Shown here one piece after another: positions 15,735 to 37,590 of a stretch of 64,000 nt of DNA. Origin of the DNA: Brevundimonas naejangsanensis. Lineage in GTDB: Bacteria > Pseudomonadota > Alphaproteobacteria > Caulobacterales > Caulobacteraceae. The notes beneath the pieces were generated by a model. The model saw nothing but the letters and a program-made list of their open reading frames with translations. It was not told where the DNA came from and did not search any database. Location: NCBI RefSeq assembly GCF_003627995.1, contig NZ_CP032707.1, positions 2,842,501-2,906,500 on the forward strand, in the 5' to 3' direction. Each line of letters starts with the position of its first letter. The first letter of the stretch is position 1. The translations under genes were made by a program, and so were the position numbers.

Positions 15735-16769
15735 ATGGACACCATAAAGCCCCTGCTGGCCAAGCTGGTCGACGGCCAGGTGCTGACCCTGGACGAGGCC
15801 AAGGCCTTCTTCGCCGCCTGCCTGCGCGGCGAACCGACCCCGTCCCAGGTCGCCGCCGCCGTCACCGCCCTGCGCATTCGCGGCGAGACGGTGGACGAGA
15901 TCGTCGCCTTCGCCAGCGCCATGCGCGACGCCGCCCTGTCGCTGAACCACCCGTTCGACGAGGTGATCGACACCTGCGGCACCGGCGGCGACGGCCAGCA
16001 CACCTACAATGTCTCGACGGCCGCCGCCTTCGTGCTGGCGGGCGCGGGCCTGAAGGTCGCCAAGCACGGCAACCGAGCCGTCAGCTCCAAGTCCGGTTCG
16101 TCCGACGTTCTGGCCGCCCTGGGCGTCAATCTGGACGCCACGCCCGCCCAGCAAGCGCGGGCGCTGGACCGGGCGGGCGTCGCCTTCCTGTTCGCCCCGA
16201 CCTATCACGGGGCCATGCGCCACGTCGGGCCGGTGCGTGGCGAGATCGGCTTCCGCACCGTGTTCAACCTGCTGGGGCCGCTGTGCAATCCGGCTGGCGC
16301 GACGCATCAGGTCATGGGCGTCTATGATCCCGCCCTGCTGGAGCCGCTGGCCGAGGTGCTGGGCCGACTGGGCGCCAGGCGAGCCTGGACCGTCAACGGC
16401 CAGGGCCTGGACGAGTTGACCACCACGGGGCCGACCGAGGTGGCGGAATGGAAGGACGGCGCCGTGCGCCGCTTCACCGTCACCCCCGCCGACGCCGGAC
16501 TGCCGCTGGCGACCATGGACGACCTGCGCGGCGGCGACGCCGAGCACAATGCGGCGGCCCTGACGGCCCTGCTGGCGGGCGAGCGCGGGCCTTACCGCGA
16601 CATCGTCCTGCTGAACGCCGCCGCCGCTTTGGTTGTGGCCGGGCGGGCCGACGACCTGAAATCGGGCGCCGAGCTCGCCGCCGCCGTCATCGACGACGGC
16701 CGCGCCGCCGCCGCCCTGGCTGAACTGGTGCGCGTCTCCCACGCGCCGATCGAAGACGAGGACGCCTGA
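15735..16769 (+). CDS. trpD: Anthranilate phosphoribosyltransferase
   Basis: 344 codons. TrpD transfers phosphoribose from PRPP to anthranilate. The PRPP-binding glycine-rich motif (DTCGTGGDG), the [15 protein letters not shown] stretch and [15 protein letters not shown] are family hallmarks. Length is normal. The stop overlaps the trpC start (ATGA), so trpG, trpD and trpC form one translationally coupled unit. Confidence 0.95.
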
Positions 16770-32698: not shown

Positions 32699-33064
32699 CT
32701 AGAAGCTGCGCCCGTCCACACGCTGGGCGGTCCAGTCCCAGGGCTCCACGTCGGTCAGGGTGCGCACGTTGATCGCCGCCACCTCGCTGCCGTCGGGCGC
32801 CACGCCGTAGCCGAAGGGCTGGACGCCGCAGGTCTTGCAAAAGCGATGGTCGATCTTGTGCCGGTTGAAGAAGTAGGAGGTCGTCTCGCCCTCCCCCTTG
32901 GTCAGGCGGAAGGCCGAGCGGGGCGCGAAGGCCAGCACGAATCCCTTGCGGTAACAATGGGTGCAGTTGCACTCGACCAGGCCTTCCAGCCCGACCTCGA
33001 CCTCATAGGCCACCGCGCCGCAGTGGCACGATCCCTTGTGCGTTACGGTTTCAGCTTGGCTCAT
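32699..33064 (-). CDS. GFA-family (Mss4-like) zinc protein
   Basis: 121 codons from the ATG at 33064, which overlaps the dnaE stop (TGATG). The GSCHCGAVAYEVEV start, the CNCTHCYRKG pair and the CKTCGVQPFGYG motif are the zinc-binding cysteine sets of the GFA domain. Members were named after glutathione-dependent formaldehyde-activating enzyme, but the function of most is unknown. The frame runs further upstream only as a shadow of dnaE. I assign family, not substrate. Confidence 0.85.
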   Translation of the reverse strand: MSQAETVTHKGSCHCGAVAYEVEVGLEGLVECNCTHCYRKGFVLAFAPRSAFRLTKGEGETTSYFFNRHKIDHRFCKTCGVQPFGYGVAPDGSEVAAINVRTLTDVEPWDWTAQRVDGRSF

Positions 33065-36000
33065 CAGGCGTCCTCCAGCATCACCACCCCCGGCGCCGAC
33101 TTCAACGCGCCGCGCAGCGCCGCGTCTAGCCGGTATCGTCCGGGCAGCTTGATTTCCACCTCGGTGCGGCCGCCCAGGGTCGCCTGCAGCCAGACCTCGC
33201 CGCCCTTGCCCTGCGCCCGCGCCCGATCCAGCCGCGCCTTCAGCGCCTCGGCGTCCGCCGACTGGGCCGACAGGACCACGCGCAGGCCGATCTGGGCGTC
33301 GTCCAGCAGCACGTCCATGCGGCTGGCGTCGTCGCCGAAGAAGCGCACCTCCCCGTCCGCCGCCTTGGCCCGCACCTTGACCAGGACCGACGCCCCCACC
33401 TCCAGAATCTCGCGGCAACGCCGCAGTTGCTCGGGCGGGAACAGGCATTCGAACTCGCCCGTCGGATCCGAGAAGGTGACGAAGGCGAACTTCTCGCCGG
33501 TGCGGGCGCTGGCCCGTTCCTGACGGCGCCGCACGACCCCGGCCATCTGGAAGGCTTCGTGCCCGGCCTCGGCCAGGCCTTGCGCCTCGGCCACGAAGGT
33601 CACGCGCTTGCGCTTCAGCGCCGGCGTCAGCTCCTCCAGCGGGTGGCCGGACAGGTAGAAACCGACGGCGTAAAGCTCCTGATCCAGCTTGTCCGGTCCG
33701 GCCCAGGGCTCCACGCTCTTCAGGCGCGGCCGGGCGGCGGCGGCCTGATCGGCGCCGAACAGGCTGACCTGGGACGAGGCGCGCTCGGCGGCCACGCTCT
33801 GGCAATAGGCGATCAGCACGTCGGCCTGCTCGAACAGCTGGCGGCGATTAGGATGGAGGCTGTCGAAAGCCCCGGCCCGCGCCAGGCCTTCCAGGGCCCG
33901 CTTGTTGACCGCCTTGGGATCGACCCGCTCCAGGAAGTCGAAGATGTCGGCGAAGGGGCCGCCCGCCTCGCGCACCTCCACCACGTGCTTCATCGCCTCC
34001 AGACCGACGTTGCGGATGGCGCCGAGCGCATAGAGGACGCTGCCCTGCCCGTCCTTCCACGCCACGTCGAAATCGGCGGACGAGCGGTTGATGTCCGGCG
34101 CCAGAACCGGAACCTCGAAACGACGGCAGTCCTGGTAGAAGACCGCCAGCTTGTCGGTGTTCGATAGATCGAGGCTCATCGAGGCGGCGAAGAACTCGAC
34201 CGGATGATTGGCCTTCAACCAGCCCGTCTGGAACGAGATCAGGGCATAGGCCGCCGCGTGCGACTTGTTGAAGCCGTAGCCCGCGAACTTGGCCACCAGG
34301 TCGAAGATGGAGCCGGACTGAGACTCCGGAACCCCCTTCTCGGACGCGCCCTTGACGAAGCGGAGGCGCTGGAAGTCCATCTCCTCCTTCTTCTTCTTGC
34401 CCATCGCGCGACGCAGCAGGTCGGCCTCGCCCAGGCTGTAGCCCGCCAGGATCTGGGCGATCTTCATCACCTGTTCCTGGTAGATGATGACGCCGTAGGT
34501 CTCGGTCAGCACCTCCTTCAGGCTGGGGTGCAGGTAGTCCACCTCGGCCCGGCCGAACTTCCGGTCGATGTAGGTATCGATCATCTCCATCGGCCCGGGC
34601 CGGTAGAGGGAGATCAGGGCGGTAATTTCCTCGATCGAGCCGCAGCGCATCTTGCGCAGGGTGTCGCGCATGCCCTGGGATTCCAGCTGGAACACCCCGA
34701 CCGTCTGGCCCGAGGCCATCAGTTCATAGGTCCTGGGATCGTCCAGCGGCAGCAGGTTCCATTCGGGCGCCGCGCCGCGCCGTTCCAGATAGCCCTTGGC
34801 CCGGTCCAGCACCGTCAGCGTCTTCAGGCCCAGGAAGTCGAACTTCACCAGGCCCGCCGGCTCGACCCACTTCATGTTGAACTGGCTGGCGGGGATGGTG
34901 GAGCGCGGGTCCTGATACAGGGGCACCAGCTCCGTCAGCGGCCGGTCGCCGATGACGATGCCCGCCGCGTGGGTCGAGGCGTTGCGATAGAGCCCTTCCA
35001 GCTCCAGCGCCGTCTCCAGCAGCGCCTTGACCGAGGCCTCGGCGTCACGCGCCTCGCGCAGGCGCGGCTCCAGGTCGATGGCCTGGGCCAGGGTCACGGG
35101 ATTGGCGGGGTTGGCCGGCACCATCTTGGCCAGGCGGTCCACCTGGCCCAGCGGCATCTGGAGCACGCGGCCCACGTCGCGCAGCACGGCCCGCGCCTGC
35201 AGGGTGCCGAAGGTGATGATCTGGGCCACCCGGTCCTTGCCGTAGTGGTCCTGGACGTAGTCGATGACCTCTTCGCGCCGCTCCTGACAGAAGTCGATGT
35301 CGAAGTCGGGCATCGACACGCGTTCCGGGTTCAGGAAGCGCTCGAACAGCAGGCCGAACCGCAAGGGATCCAGGTCGGTGATGGTCAGCGACCAGGCGAC
35401 CAGGGAGCCGGCCCCCGAGCCCCGCCCCGGCCCCACCGGGATGTCATGCAGCTTGGCCCATTTGATGAAGTCGGCAACGATCAGGAAGTAGCCGGGGAAC
35501 CCCATCTGCTGGATGATCCCCACCTCCCACTCGAGGCGGTCCCAATAGTCCTGCTCGGGCGCGTAAGCCTTATTCTTCTCCAGCCGCGCCTTCAGCCCCT
35601 CGCGCGCCTGGTGCGCCAGTTCGTCGGCCTCGGAACGGCCCGCGCCGGTGTCGAAGCGCGGCAGGATCGGCTTGTGCGTCTTGACCAGGAAGGCGCAGCG
35701 GCGGGCGATCTCGATGGTGTTGTCGCAGGCCTCGGGCAGGTCGGCGAACAGCTCGCGCATCGCCTCGGCCGACTTGAACCAGTGCTCGCCGGTGACGCGG
35801 CGGCGGTCCTCCTGGCCCGTGAAGGCGCCGTCGGAGATGCACAGAAGCGCGTCATGCGACTTCGCCTGGGCCGCCTTGGCGTAATAGACGTCGTTGGTCG
35901 CGACGAGCGGGACATCGTTGGCGTAGGCCCATTCGACCAGGCCGCCCTCGGCCTCGATCTCGCTGGACAGGCCGTGGCGCTGCAGTTCGACATAGAAGCG

Positions 36001-36534
36001 GTCGCCGAACACCCGCTTCATCTCGGCCAGGGCGGCGGCGGCCTCGGCGGGTTTCTTCTGCACGAACAGCGGGTCGATCGGGCCGTCCGGACCGCCTGAC
36101 AGCAGGATCAGCCCCTCGGACTTTTCCACAACCTTTCCCCAGGGCACGCCCGGCTCGGCCATCTCGCCCGCGTCGAGGTAGGCGGCGGACGACAGGGCGC
36201 ACAGATTGAGCCAGCCCCGCTCGTTCTGGGCCAGCAGGACGACCGTCGGGGTCTTGGCCCAGCGCGGCGCCGCCTGCCCGCCGATGTCGAGCACCGGCAG
36301 GGCGCAGGCGACCAGCGGCTGCACCCCCGCGTCCTTGGTCGTCTGGCTGAACTCCAGCGCGCCGAACAGGTTGGCGCGGTCGGCCACGGCGACGGCGGGC
36401 ATGCCCGCCTCGGCGGCCATCTTGCCGATCTTGCCGGCCTTGATCGCGCCTTCAAGCAAGGAATAGGCGCTGCGGACCCGCAGATGGACAAAGCCCTGAC
36501 TGTTCACCGCATCCGCCAATTGAAAACTCCGCAT
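33064..36534 (-). CDS. dnaE: DNA polymerase III alpha subunit
   Basis: 1156 codons. DnaE is the replicative polymerase. The PHP domain starts at [17 protein letters not shown]. The [14 protein letters not shown] segment and the catalytic [12 protein letters not shown] motif lie near residues 380-420. The fingers domain contains [14 protein letters not shown] and the helix-hairpin-helix/OB-fold region is C-terminal. The start is either the ATG at 36534 or a GTG nine codons in. The sidA candidate lies upstream on the same strand with an 83-base gap. Confidence 0.95.
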
Positions 36535-36617
36535 CGCAGCGCCCGCTCACACGGACGCGCCTCATCATGCAGGGAGTCTGCCGCGCCCTTCAAACCGGGC
36601 GTCGGCACGGCAGCGGG

Positions 36618-36707
36618 TCACGCCACCAGGAAGGCCGCCTGCCAGACCATCCAGACGAAGCCGCCGCAGGACGCAAGCGACAGCAGTTCCCTCACCCAAC
36701 GCGCCAT
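36618..36707 (-). CDS. sidA: SidA-like SOS-induced division inhibitor (29 residues), candidate
   Basis: An ATG at 36707 opens a 29-codon frame ending at TGA 36618, with GGGGA about nine bases before the start. The product has a short basic/acidic N-terminus (MARWVREL) and then one hydrophobic, Trp-containing helix (GGFVWMVWQAAFLVA). Caulobacter SidA is a 29-residue inner-membrane protein made under LexA control that blocks division by binding FtsW. Here the length, topology, LexA-like boxes over the promoter and position beside dnaE all agree; the neighbouring position in Caulobacter is from memory. I could not align the two sequences. Another small membrane protein remains possible. Confidence 0.65.
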   Translation of the reverse strand: MARWVRELLSLASCGGFVWMVWQAAFLVA

Positions 36708-36729
36708 TGATTTTATCCCCAGATCAAAT

Positions 36730-36769
36730 GTTGCCCATTTGTTCTATGTTGCCGATTTGTTCTCGTCAA
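36730..36769 (-). promoter_or_regulatory. Promoter overlapped by two LexA-like boxes
   Basis: On the minus strand, TTGACG (36764-36769) and TAGAAC (36741-36746) are 17 bases apart and 34 bases upstream of the sidA candidate. On the plus strand, GTTG-N7-GTTC occurs twice, at 36730-36744 and 36748-36762, spaced 18 bases apart, with nearly identical centres. The alphaproteobacterial LexA box is GTTC-N7-GTTC, so each box has one mismatch. Both cover the promoter, where a repressor would block RNA polymerase. Confidence 0.6.
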
Positions 36770-36846
36770 CCGCAAATTGTTTGACAAGGTAAGCGTGGCC
36801 GGCCTGCGCGGGACCGCTCGGCCGAACCTCATTGGCAGGCGTGGGC

Positions 36847-37590
36847 TCAGTAGGCTTGGCTCTGGGCCGCCCTCTGTTCCAGGTGGCCGTCCTTCAGGGC
36901 GAAGACACGGTCCATGTGGCCCGCCAACTCCATGTTGTGGGTGGCGATCAGGGCGGCGATGCCCGTGGTCTTGGCCCGTTCGCGCAGGGCCTCGAACACC
37001 GCCTGGCTGGTGGCGGGGTCCAGGTTGCCGGTCGGCTCGTCCGCCAGCAGCAGGCGCGGGCTGTTGGCCAGGGCGCGGGCGATGGCGACCCGCTGCTGCT
37101 CGCCGCCGGACAATTGCGCCGGCTGGTGGGTGACGCGCTCGCCCAGCCCGAGGGCGGTCAGGGTCTGGGTCGCGCGCCGACGCGCCTCCCCTTCCCGCAC
37201 GCCCGCGATGCGCATGGGCAGGGCCACATTGTCGAGGGCGTCGAACTCGGGCAGCAGGTGGTGGAACTGATAAACAAAGCCGATGCGGTGCAGGCGCAGC
37301 CGCGTGCGCGCGCGTTCGTCCAGCCCGCCGACGTCCTCGCCGTCGATCAGCACATGGCCGCTGGTCGGCCGCTCCAGCAGGCCCGCCGCGTGCAGCAGGC
37401 TGGACTTGCCCGAGCCTGACGGCCCGATCAGGCCGACGACCTCGCCCGGCATGACGTCCAGGTCAACGCCCTTCAGAACCGTCAGCCCGCCCTGGGCGGT
37501 CGGATAGGTGCGCGTCACCCCGCGCAGCGACAGGATGGCGCCGTTCGTCCCGGCGGCGACGGCGGGCTTCTTCTTCAGCAGCCTATTCAA
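36847..37590 (-). CDS. lolD: Lipoprotein-releasing ABC transporter ATP-binding protein LolD
   Basis: 247 codons. LolD powers release of outer-membrane lipoproteins from the inner membrane. Walker A (GPSGSGKSS), the ABC signature (LSGGEQQRVAIARAL) and Walker B (LLLADEPTGNLD) are complete. The start appears to be a TTG at 37590 inside the last codons of lolC. No better start exists before the ATPase core. The gene pairs with the LolC/E-type permease just upstream. Confidence 0.92.
   Translation of the reverse strand: MNRLLKKKPAVAAGTNGAILSLRGVTRTYPTAQGGLTVLKGVDLDVMPGEVVGLIGPSGSGKSSLLHAAGLLERPTSGHVLIDGEDVGGLDERARTRLRLHRIGFVYQFHHLLPEFDALDNVALPMRIAGVREGEARRRATQTLTALGLGERVTHQPAQLSGGEQQRVAIARALANSPRLLLADEPTGNLDPATSQAVFEALRERAKTTGIAALIATHNMELAGHMDRVFALKDGHLEQRAAQSQAY

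What the first reader, a model, noticed from the sequence alone, without database searches (positions are those of the whole stretch)
36618..36707. A 29-codon SidA-like gene next to dnaE
The frame is below the size cut-off of most gene finders. Its product is 29 residues with a single Trp-containing membrane helix, the same size and topology as the Caulobacter SOS division inhibitor SidA. It lies beside dnaE and has LexA-like boxes at its promoter. If confirmed, this extends the FtsW-directed DNA-damage checkpoint to this organism.
Basis: partly seen in the sequence, partly recalled or inferred. Interest (0 to 1): 0.75.

Follow-up and report, generated by a model that had tools for sequence, protein, structure and literature searches.

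The report
SidA cell-division brake beside dnaE
A tiny, easily overlooked gene in a Brevundimonas bacterium is almost certainly its version of SidA, the 29-residue membrane brake that stops Caulobacter cells dividing while their DNA is damaged, and likely distant versions sit in the same place in several other groups of alphaproteobacteria.

Summary
Window 36618-36707 (-) encodes MARWVRELLSLASCGGFVWMVWQAAFLVA, 83 bp upstream of dnaE, with a Shine-Dalgarno-like site and a promoter carrying two LexA-type operators. In the same genome perfect operators precede lexA, recA and ssb. The frame is under purifying selection (pN/pS 0.30) and was found in all 73 same-genus genomes listed. It is an ortholog of Caulobacter SidA: same length, same place before dnaE, related sequence, LexA-type promoter. 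It scores 25.7 bits on NCBI's SidA model, below that model's cut-off of 35. FtsW residues 31, 145 and 246, where SidA-bypass mutations map in C. crescentus, are identical here. Function (SOS-induced block of FtsW) is inferred, not shown. Beyond the finding: LexA-boxed one-helix mini-ORFs upstream of dnaE occur in Maricaulis, Parvularculaceae, Parvibaculum, Phreatobacter, Stappia, Pseudovibrio and the PS1 clade. A profile built without the class sample put its top 8 frames there, all 8 with perfect LexA boxes. SidA therefore looks like an old alphaproteobacterial peptide, absent from many lineages, not a Caulobacter peculiarity. Single distant members are uncertain. In passing: a perfect LexA box before mraZ, head of the division-gene cluster, in 26 of 29 Brevundimonas genomes.

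The parts
36618..36707 (-). sidA ortholog, 29 codons, ATG start
   Evidence: NCBIfam NF033228 1-29/29, 25.7 bits, E 8.2e-6, below cut-off 35
36716..36720 (-). Shine-Dalgarno-like GGGGA, 8 nt before the ATG
   Evidence: read from the sequence; gGG columns conserved among 40 unique upstream regions
36730..36744 (-). proximal LexA-type operator GAACAAATGGGCAAC, overlapping the -10
36748..36762 (-). distal LexA-type operator GAACAAATCGGCAAC, in the -35/-10 spacer
36764..36769 (-). -35-like hexamer TTGACG
   Evidence: TTGAC in 35 of 41 unique anchored promoters; the strict promoter scan did not list it
36741..36746 (-). -10-like hexamer TAGAAC, 17 bp from the -35, sharing bases with the proximal operator
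   Evidence: TAnA in 40 of 41 unique anchored promoters
33064..36534 (-). dnaE, replicative DNA polymerase III alpha subunit, 83 bp downstream of sidA as listed; its exact start is uncertain (homologs align from residues 1-15)
   Evidence: no terminator-like site in 36500-36860
36847..37590 (-). lolD-like ABC ATPase, the upstream neighbour
   Evidence: name from recall of the LolCDE family

Best explanation
The frame is the Brevundimonas ortholog of SidA. LexA sits on two operators, one between the -35 and -10 and one on the -10, and keeps the promoter off. DNA damage activates RecA, LexA is cleaved, and the 29-residue peptide is made. Its basic N-terminus stays in the cytoplasm and its one helix enters the inner membrane, where it holds FtsW (in the FtsW/FtsI/FtsN complex) inactive, so constriction waits until repair. 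Shown here: the gene, its conservation, the operators and promoter geometry, the place in the genome, and the unchanged FtsW residues. Inferred from C. crescentus: LexA repression, membrane topology, FtsW binding and the division block.
For: Matches at E <= 2.2e-5 in the 73 same-genus genomes listed (own included), and at a loose E <= 10 in 267 of 299 Caulobacteraceae genomes. Full-length hit to NF033228; a Caulobacter-genus homolog scores 72.4 bits on that model, and a bridging sequence (L014) scores 38, above the cut-off, while being 66% identical to the query. pN/pS 0.30. Tandem operators 18 bp apart in 41 of 48 loci; TTGAC in 35 of 41 and TAnA in 40 of 41 unique promoters. Perfect LexA boxes before lexA, recA and ssb in this genome. 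FtsW A31, F145 and A246 identical to a Caulobacter FtsW; in PMC4211646 A31K, F145L and A246T suppress SidA lethality (passages read). C. crescentus dnaE is CC1926 (PMC1839093, passage read); that sidA is CC1927 is recalled.
Against: Score on NF033228 is under its curated cut-off. Both operators in this genome are GAACN7CAAC, one base off consensus in one half. No expression or interaction data for this organism. A246T does not affect SidA binding, so identity at 246 says little about contact; F145 and A246 also occur in FtsW of Maricaulis and Phreatobacter, so they may be kept for FtsW's own work. The C. crescentus peptide itself was not in hand.
Confidence: 0.86

Rival explanations
1. The frame is a leader peptide or attenuator of dnaE: LexA regulates the replicative polymerase through this promoter, and the peptide matters only as a leader.
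For: Only 83 bp separate it from dnaE as listed and no terminator-like site was found in 36500-36860, so read-through into dnaE is plausible.
Against: The amino-acid sequence is conserved, not just translation (pN/pS 0.30). ATG-to-dnaE distance ranges from about 100 to 340 bp among Brevundimonas loci. In C. crescentus SidA acts on FtsW and a lexA mutant's filamentation depends on sidA (PMC4211646, PMC12700426, passages read).
Confidence: 0.06
2. It is an SOS-controlled single-helix peptide of other function (for example a depolarising toxin like DinQ or TisB) that only resembles SidA.
For: Small LexA-controlled one-helix toxins exist in enterobacteria (DinQ, abstract start seen; TisB recalled).
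Against: Direct sequence similarity to Caulobacter-genus SidA with a bridging sequence above the NCBI cut-off, and the same place directly before dnaE.
Confidence: 0.05
3. The frame is not a gene; the operators serve dnaE only.
For: 29 codons is short, and the LexA-like motif alone is at chance frequency in the window.
Against: Codon-level selection, conservation across the genus and family, conserved Shine-Dalgarno-like site and ATG.
Confidence: 0.01

Closest known systems
SidA of Caulobacter crescentus (NCBIfam NF033228 div_inhib_SidA)
   Same: 29 residues, one helix, LxSxxxFVWM core, placed before dnaE, LexA-type operator at the promoter, FtsW bypass residues present
   Different: 48-57% identity to the 7 Caulobacter-genus homologs in hand; Trp at 22 where those have Cys; below the NCBI cut-off; two GAACN7SAAC operators in most Brevundimonas loci against one or none in the 7 Caulobacter-genus loci (degenerate second boxes in several); no function tested
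DidA of C. crescentus
   Same: small one-helix division inhibitor acting on the FtsW/I/N complex (PMC4211646, passages read)
   Different: 71 residues, SOS-independent (DriD), contacts FtsN
YneA (Bacillus), SosA (Staphylococcus), ChiZ (Mycobacterium)
   Same: SOS-induced membrane division inhibitors; shown or predicted to contact FtsW (PMC13396833, passages read)
   Different: larger, ChiZ with a LysM domain; no sequence relation tested here; SidA was predicted there on the opposite side of FtsW TM7
SulA of Escherichia coli
   Same: LexA-controlled division brake
   Different: blocks FtsZ polymerisation, not FtsW (PMC4211646, passage read)

Membership tests
SidA (ortholog group) | about 29 residues with a single transmembrane segment | tested here: met
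   by simple hydropathy only; B. diminuta-group peptides of nearly the same sequence pass a 15-residue cut of 1.3 but miss a 17-residue cut of 1.5
SidA (ortholog group) | sequence homology to Caulobacter SidA | tested here: met
   tblastn E 6e-5, 55% identity to the Caulobacter sp. D5 homolog (L016); that homolog scores 72.4 bits on NF033228; alignment A1
NCBIfam NF033228 equivalog | score at or above curated cut-off of 35 bits | tested here: not met
   25.7 bits, 23.2 bits in the six-frame search; so it is filed as an ortholog of the locus, not as a member of that equivalog set
SidA (ortholog group) | LexA-regulated promoter | tested here: inconclusive
   motif and geometry fit, LexA and boxed recA/ssb/lexA in the genome; binding and regulation not tested
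SidA (ortholog group) | place directly upstream of dnaE | tested here: met
   CC1926 = dnaE; sidA = CC1927 recalled
SidA (ortholog group) | binds FtsW and inhibits division | not testable with these tools
   FtsW A31, F145, A246 unchanged, which is compatible but not proof
SidA (ortholog group) | induced by DNA damage through RecA/LexA | not testable with these tools
   needs RNA-seq or reporter

The most novel reading that the evidence does not exclude
SidA is not a Caulobacter invention but an old alphaproteobacterial SOS checkpoint peptide. It was encoded in one fixed place, directly upstream of dnaE and after lolD, under LexA in a common ancestor of Caulobacterales, Maricaulales, Parvularculales, Parvibaculales, the PS1 clade and part of the Hyphomicrobiales. 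It was lost where the lolD-dnaE gap closed. It supplies an FtsW-directed division brake in lineages for which no SOS division inhibitor is named.
Probability: 0.6. Interest if true: 0.68.

Novelty: new member of a known kind. Interest (0 to 1): 0.52.

Why it matters
It indicates that the FtsW-directed SOS checkpoint studied in one species is present, below NCBI's naming cut-off, throughout the Brevundimonas genomes searched. It also gives a simple rule (look just upstream of dnaE, downstream of a LexA box) for finding candidate division brakes in other alphaproteobacteria. A set of diverged natural peptides with their FtsW partners would make the SidA-FtsW contact surface directly testable.

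Tried and rejected
Chance frame: rejected by pN/pS and conservation. LexA motif alone as proof: rejected, 4 matches against 2.99 expected in the window. Pfam: no hit. The hydropathy filters were both too strict and too loose: the filter missed 8 of 14 Brevundimonas loci that homology finds and picked a spurious frame in L018, L038, L062 and L079; I relied on the profile test instead. My first FtsW extraction picked wrong frames and was redone. My first profile-shuffle script had conflicting options and gave no scores; redone. Single distant peptides scored one by one against the Caulobacteraceae profile are weak: 15 of 31 are matched by at most 5% of their own shuffles, 16 of 31 are not. One of the 14 strict class hits, L241, has its box in the other orientation and its dnaE-upstream frame is not among the 60 best profile hits listed; I do not count it. 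Six of 25 class loci have a box upstream of dnaE but no frame that passed the filter (L122, L156, L159, L181, L206, L228); these were not re-examined. An unbroken lolD-sidA-dnaE order throughout Caulobacteraceae, which I first wrote, is not borne out: lolD is often further off.

Full report
What is there. Window 36618-36707 on the minus strand is an ATG-started frame of 29 codons, MARWVRELLSLASCGGFVWMVWQAAFLVA. Its neighbours on the same strand are lolD upstream (36847-37590) and dnaE downstream (33064-36534), 83 bp after its stop as listed. The closest dnaE loci in a named genome collection are Brevundimonas diminuta and relatives at 97% protein identity, so the organism is a Brevundimonas; its genome is one 3.0-Mb contig.

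It is a gene. tblastn found it in the 73 same-genus genomes listed (own included), the weakest at E 2.2e-5, and at a loose E <= 10, which admits chance hits, in 267 of 299 Caulobacteraceae genomes; none of the 20 listed non-matching genomes is of the genus, and 12 more non-matching genomes are not listed. Among 36 unique coding sequences of the Brevundimonas group (46 before removing duplicates) pN/pS is 0.30 in frame, against 1.29 and 2.76 in the other forward frames and 0.94, 0.66 and 3.13 in the reverse frames. A GGGGA Shine-Dalgarno-like site lies 8 nt before the ATG.

Its promoter. Two LexA-type operators, GAACAAATCGGCAAC and GAACAAATGGGCAAC, start at -55 and -37. In 41 of 48 related loci (duplicates not removed) a pair of GAACN7SAAC boxes lies exactly 18 bp apart; the other 7 have one box under that pattern. 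Anchored on the distal box (in the single-box loci its place was set by the 18-bp rule), 41 unique promoters give TTGACG, then the distal operator inside a 17-bp spacer, then TAGAAC as -10, which is also the start of the proximal operator; TTGAC is present in 35 of 41 and TAnA in 40 of 41. A strict sigma-70 scan lists a different, weaker pair instead, so the promoter rests on conservation. In this genome LexA is present (181.9 bits over a cut-off of 110.95). I looked at 12 stretches around some of the genome's 122 GAACN7SAAC sites (70 and 52 by strand, against 33 and 27 for the control pattern), chosen for AT-rich spacers or nearness to lexA. Perfect boxes lie 53 and 28 bp before lexA, 84 and 103 bp before the first ATG of recA, 71 bp before ssb, 39 bp before a comM-like gene, 39 bp before a radical-SAM gene and 142 bp before mraZ; the other 6 stretches showed no gene I recognise as SOS-related (gene names read from the translations, by recall). 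This is not a regulon count.

It is a SidA ortholog. NCBIfam's SidA equivalog model matches residues 1-29 at 25.7 bits, E 8.2e-6, below its cut-off of 35. A Caulobacter-genus homolog scores 72.4 bits, a Phenylobacterium one 67.2, and a bridging sequence (L014) 38, above the cut-off, while an Asticcacaulis one (26.5) falls below like ours. L014 is 66% identical to our peptide. The cut-off seems set on the Caulobacter-Phenylobacterium side; I file our gene as an ortholog of the SidA locus, not as a member of that equivalog set. The C. crescentus peptide itself was not in hand; the comparison is with other members of the genus (48-57% identity over 7 loci) and with the model.

The target. C. crescentus SidA is a 29-residue inner membrane protein that contacts FtsW, and FtsW A31K, F145L and A246T suppress its lethality (PMC4211646, passages read). 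Numbering the FtsW of Caulobacter sp. D5 from its MRQQT start gives A31, F145 and A246, so the published numbering fits. FtsW of our genome has A, F and A at those three places and is identical at 242 of 389 aligned positions. Of the other FtsW proteins aligned, B. diminuta has A, F, A, Maricaulis V, F, A, Phreatobacter A, F, A and Stappia G, M, A. PMC13396833 (passages read) reports AlphaFold 3 models, not of high confidence, that put SidA on TM7 of FtsW.

Beyond Brevundimonas. Looking upstream of dnaE in 80 named loci (79 with a dnaE N-terminus), I found one-helix mini-ORFs after a LexA box (perfect, or with one mismatch) not only in Caulobacter (7 of 7), Phenylobacterium (5 of 5) and Asticcacaulis (5 of 5, all with one mismatch) but in 6 of 6 Maricaulis-like loci (Maricaulis, Oceanicaulis, Robiginitomaculum), and in Parvularculaceae and Aquisalinus, Parvibaculum, Tepidicaulis, Phreatobacter, a Xanthobacteraceae genome, Stappia, Pseudovibrio and the PS1 clade. 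In the group of 28 other alphaproteobacteria 14 have a perfect box with such a frame (the frame picked for L062 and L079 there is spurious, the credible ones are) and 14 have none, among them Magnetospirillum, Insolitispirillum, Maritimibacter, Nioella and a Rhodobacteraceae genome; one further locus was too short to judge. One Caulobacteraceae MAG, L053, also has none.

A sample of the class. 162 genomes were drawn evenly, 156 with dnaE; I fetched up to 6 kb upstream from 140 of these 156, leaving out the own genome, one same-genus genome and the 14 lowest-scoring. Of 138 with at least 200 bp, 25 have a perfect direct-repeat box within 450 bp of dnaE; the rest of the fetched sequence holds 28 counted on both strands of 0.72 Mb, that is 14 places. 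14 of 138 have the box plus a Trp-containing one-helix frame, against 0 in the rest. Five more have a box and a helix frame that the filter had missed, one of them (L194) weak; one of the 14, L241, I do not count. That leaves 18 of 138.

The independent test. A profile trained on Caulobacteraceae and named genomes, with no use of LexA boxes, was run over 17,672 start-to-stop frames (nested starts counted) on both strands of the 140 class loci. All 8 frames at 14 bits or more lie within 500 bp upstream of dnaE on its strand, and all 8 have a perfect LexA box; at 10 bits or more 9 of 10 lie there, at 6 or more 14 of 21. Of my 18, those 14 reach 6 bits; L209 (5.8), L194 (5.6) and L155 (4.3) do not, and L169 is not among the 60 hits listed. 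Some class genomes may be close kin of the named ones. Profile against profile, Caulobacteraceae SidA and 19 distant peptides align with probability 95.5 and score 32.9; the best of 100 column-permuted controls reached 14.5 and the reversed alignment 8.0. Taken singly, only 15 of 31 distant peptides stand out from their own shuffles.

The place. lolD lies directly upstream of dnaE (gap under 1.2 kb, same strand) in 14 of 18 class positives, with gaps from 190 bp up, and in 13 of 20 named non-Caulobacteraceae positives. Among 121 other class loci 49 have lolD directly upstream, and 34 of those 49 have a gap of 165 bp or less, too small for the peptide and its promoter; 15 of 49 have 234 bp or more. 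In 43 named Caulobacteraceae or Caulobacteraceae-like loci lolD-like sequence is on the same strand upstream in 35 or 36 (36 by my count), with gaps of about 227 to 2676 bp in those with a peptide (B. diminuta-group loci about 1430 bp, our window 312 bp) and 18 bp in L053, which has no peptide; the others show no lolD in the held flank. So sidA-dnaE is the tight pair and lolD the looser neighbour. The simplest reading is one ancestral locus with repeated loss; no tree was built.

A second link to division. The perfect box before mraZ (GTTCCATGTATGTTC on the mraZ strand) recurs at -118 to -145 in 26 of 29 Brevundimonas loci, with none in 3. mraZ and ftsW lie on the same strand about 9 kb apart here, as expected for the mraZ-to-ftsZ division cluster. 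No paper listed shows, by title or abstract start, LexA control of mraZ in Caulobacter, and the one I searched (PMC12700426) does not mention mraZ. Whether LexA acts there is unknown.

What is and is not in print. Searches of the open library for SidA with FtsW, Brevundimonas, LexA and Alphaproteobacteria, LexA and dnaE, Rhizobium, and Caulobacterales listed no paper that, by title, abstract start or the passages I read, describes SidA outside Caulobacter; most listed papers were not opened. Modell 2011 and Erill 2004 are not held, and either may mention relatives or a LexA site before dnaE.

Judgement. The finding is right and its direct content is expected biology: an ortholog in a sister genus. 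The wider pattern is what raises the interest. Function is inferred throughout.

Noticed in passing
G000:C1:386084-386098, 142 bp before mraZ (385687-385956, -), outside the window; L305-L333: A perfect LexA box lies 118-145 bp before mraZ, head of the division-gene cluster that holds ftsW, in 26 of 29 Brevundimonas loci. It may be a second SOS input on cell division.
   Followed up: partly
L032 -211, -193 and -175 from dnaE (Asticcacaulis benevestitus): Three degenerate LexA-type boxes in a row, each 18 bp apart, before the SidA-like frame; four other Asticcacaulis loci have two of the GAACN7GAAT form.
   Followed up: partly
G000:C1:2909880 and lexA at 2909933, about 3.4 kb beyond the window's right end: lexA lies about 30 kb from sidA-dnaE and carries two boxes in opposite orientation; in C. 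crescentus lexA (CC1902) and dnaE (CC1926) are also near each other by number.
   Followed up: partly
L146 (unnamed class genome of 1.9 Mb) and L071 (PS1 clade): The smallest SidA-like frames, 26-27 residues without Trp, with a perfect LexA box.
   Followed up: no
lolD-dnaE junction in the class loci: Where lolD is adjacent, all 14 loci with a peptide have gaps of 190 bp or more, while 34 of 49 without one have 165 bp or less; in Brevundimonas the gap varies from 312 bp (window) to 2676 bp, so other DNA comes and goes there.
   Followed up: partly
window 36535-36617: No terminator-like site between sidA and dnaE, so SOS induction may also raise dnaE transcription by read-through.
   Followed up: no
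window 16096-16110 (-): A lone perfect GAACN7GAAC match; chance expectation for the looser pattern is about 3 per window.
   Followed up: no
L297 (own genome, 39 bp after a perfect LexA box): A radical-SAM-like protein (CxxxCxYC motif) may be in the LexA regulon of this organism; family named by recall.
   Followed up: no
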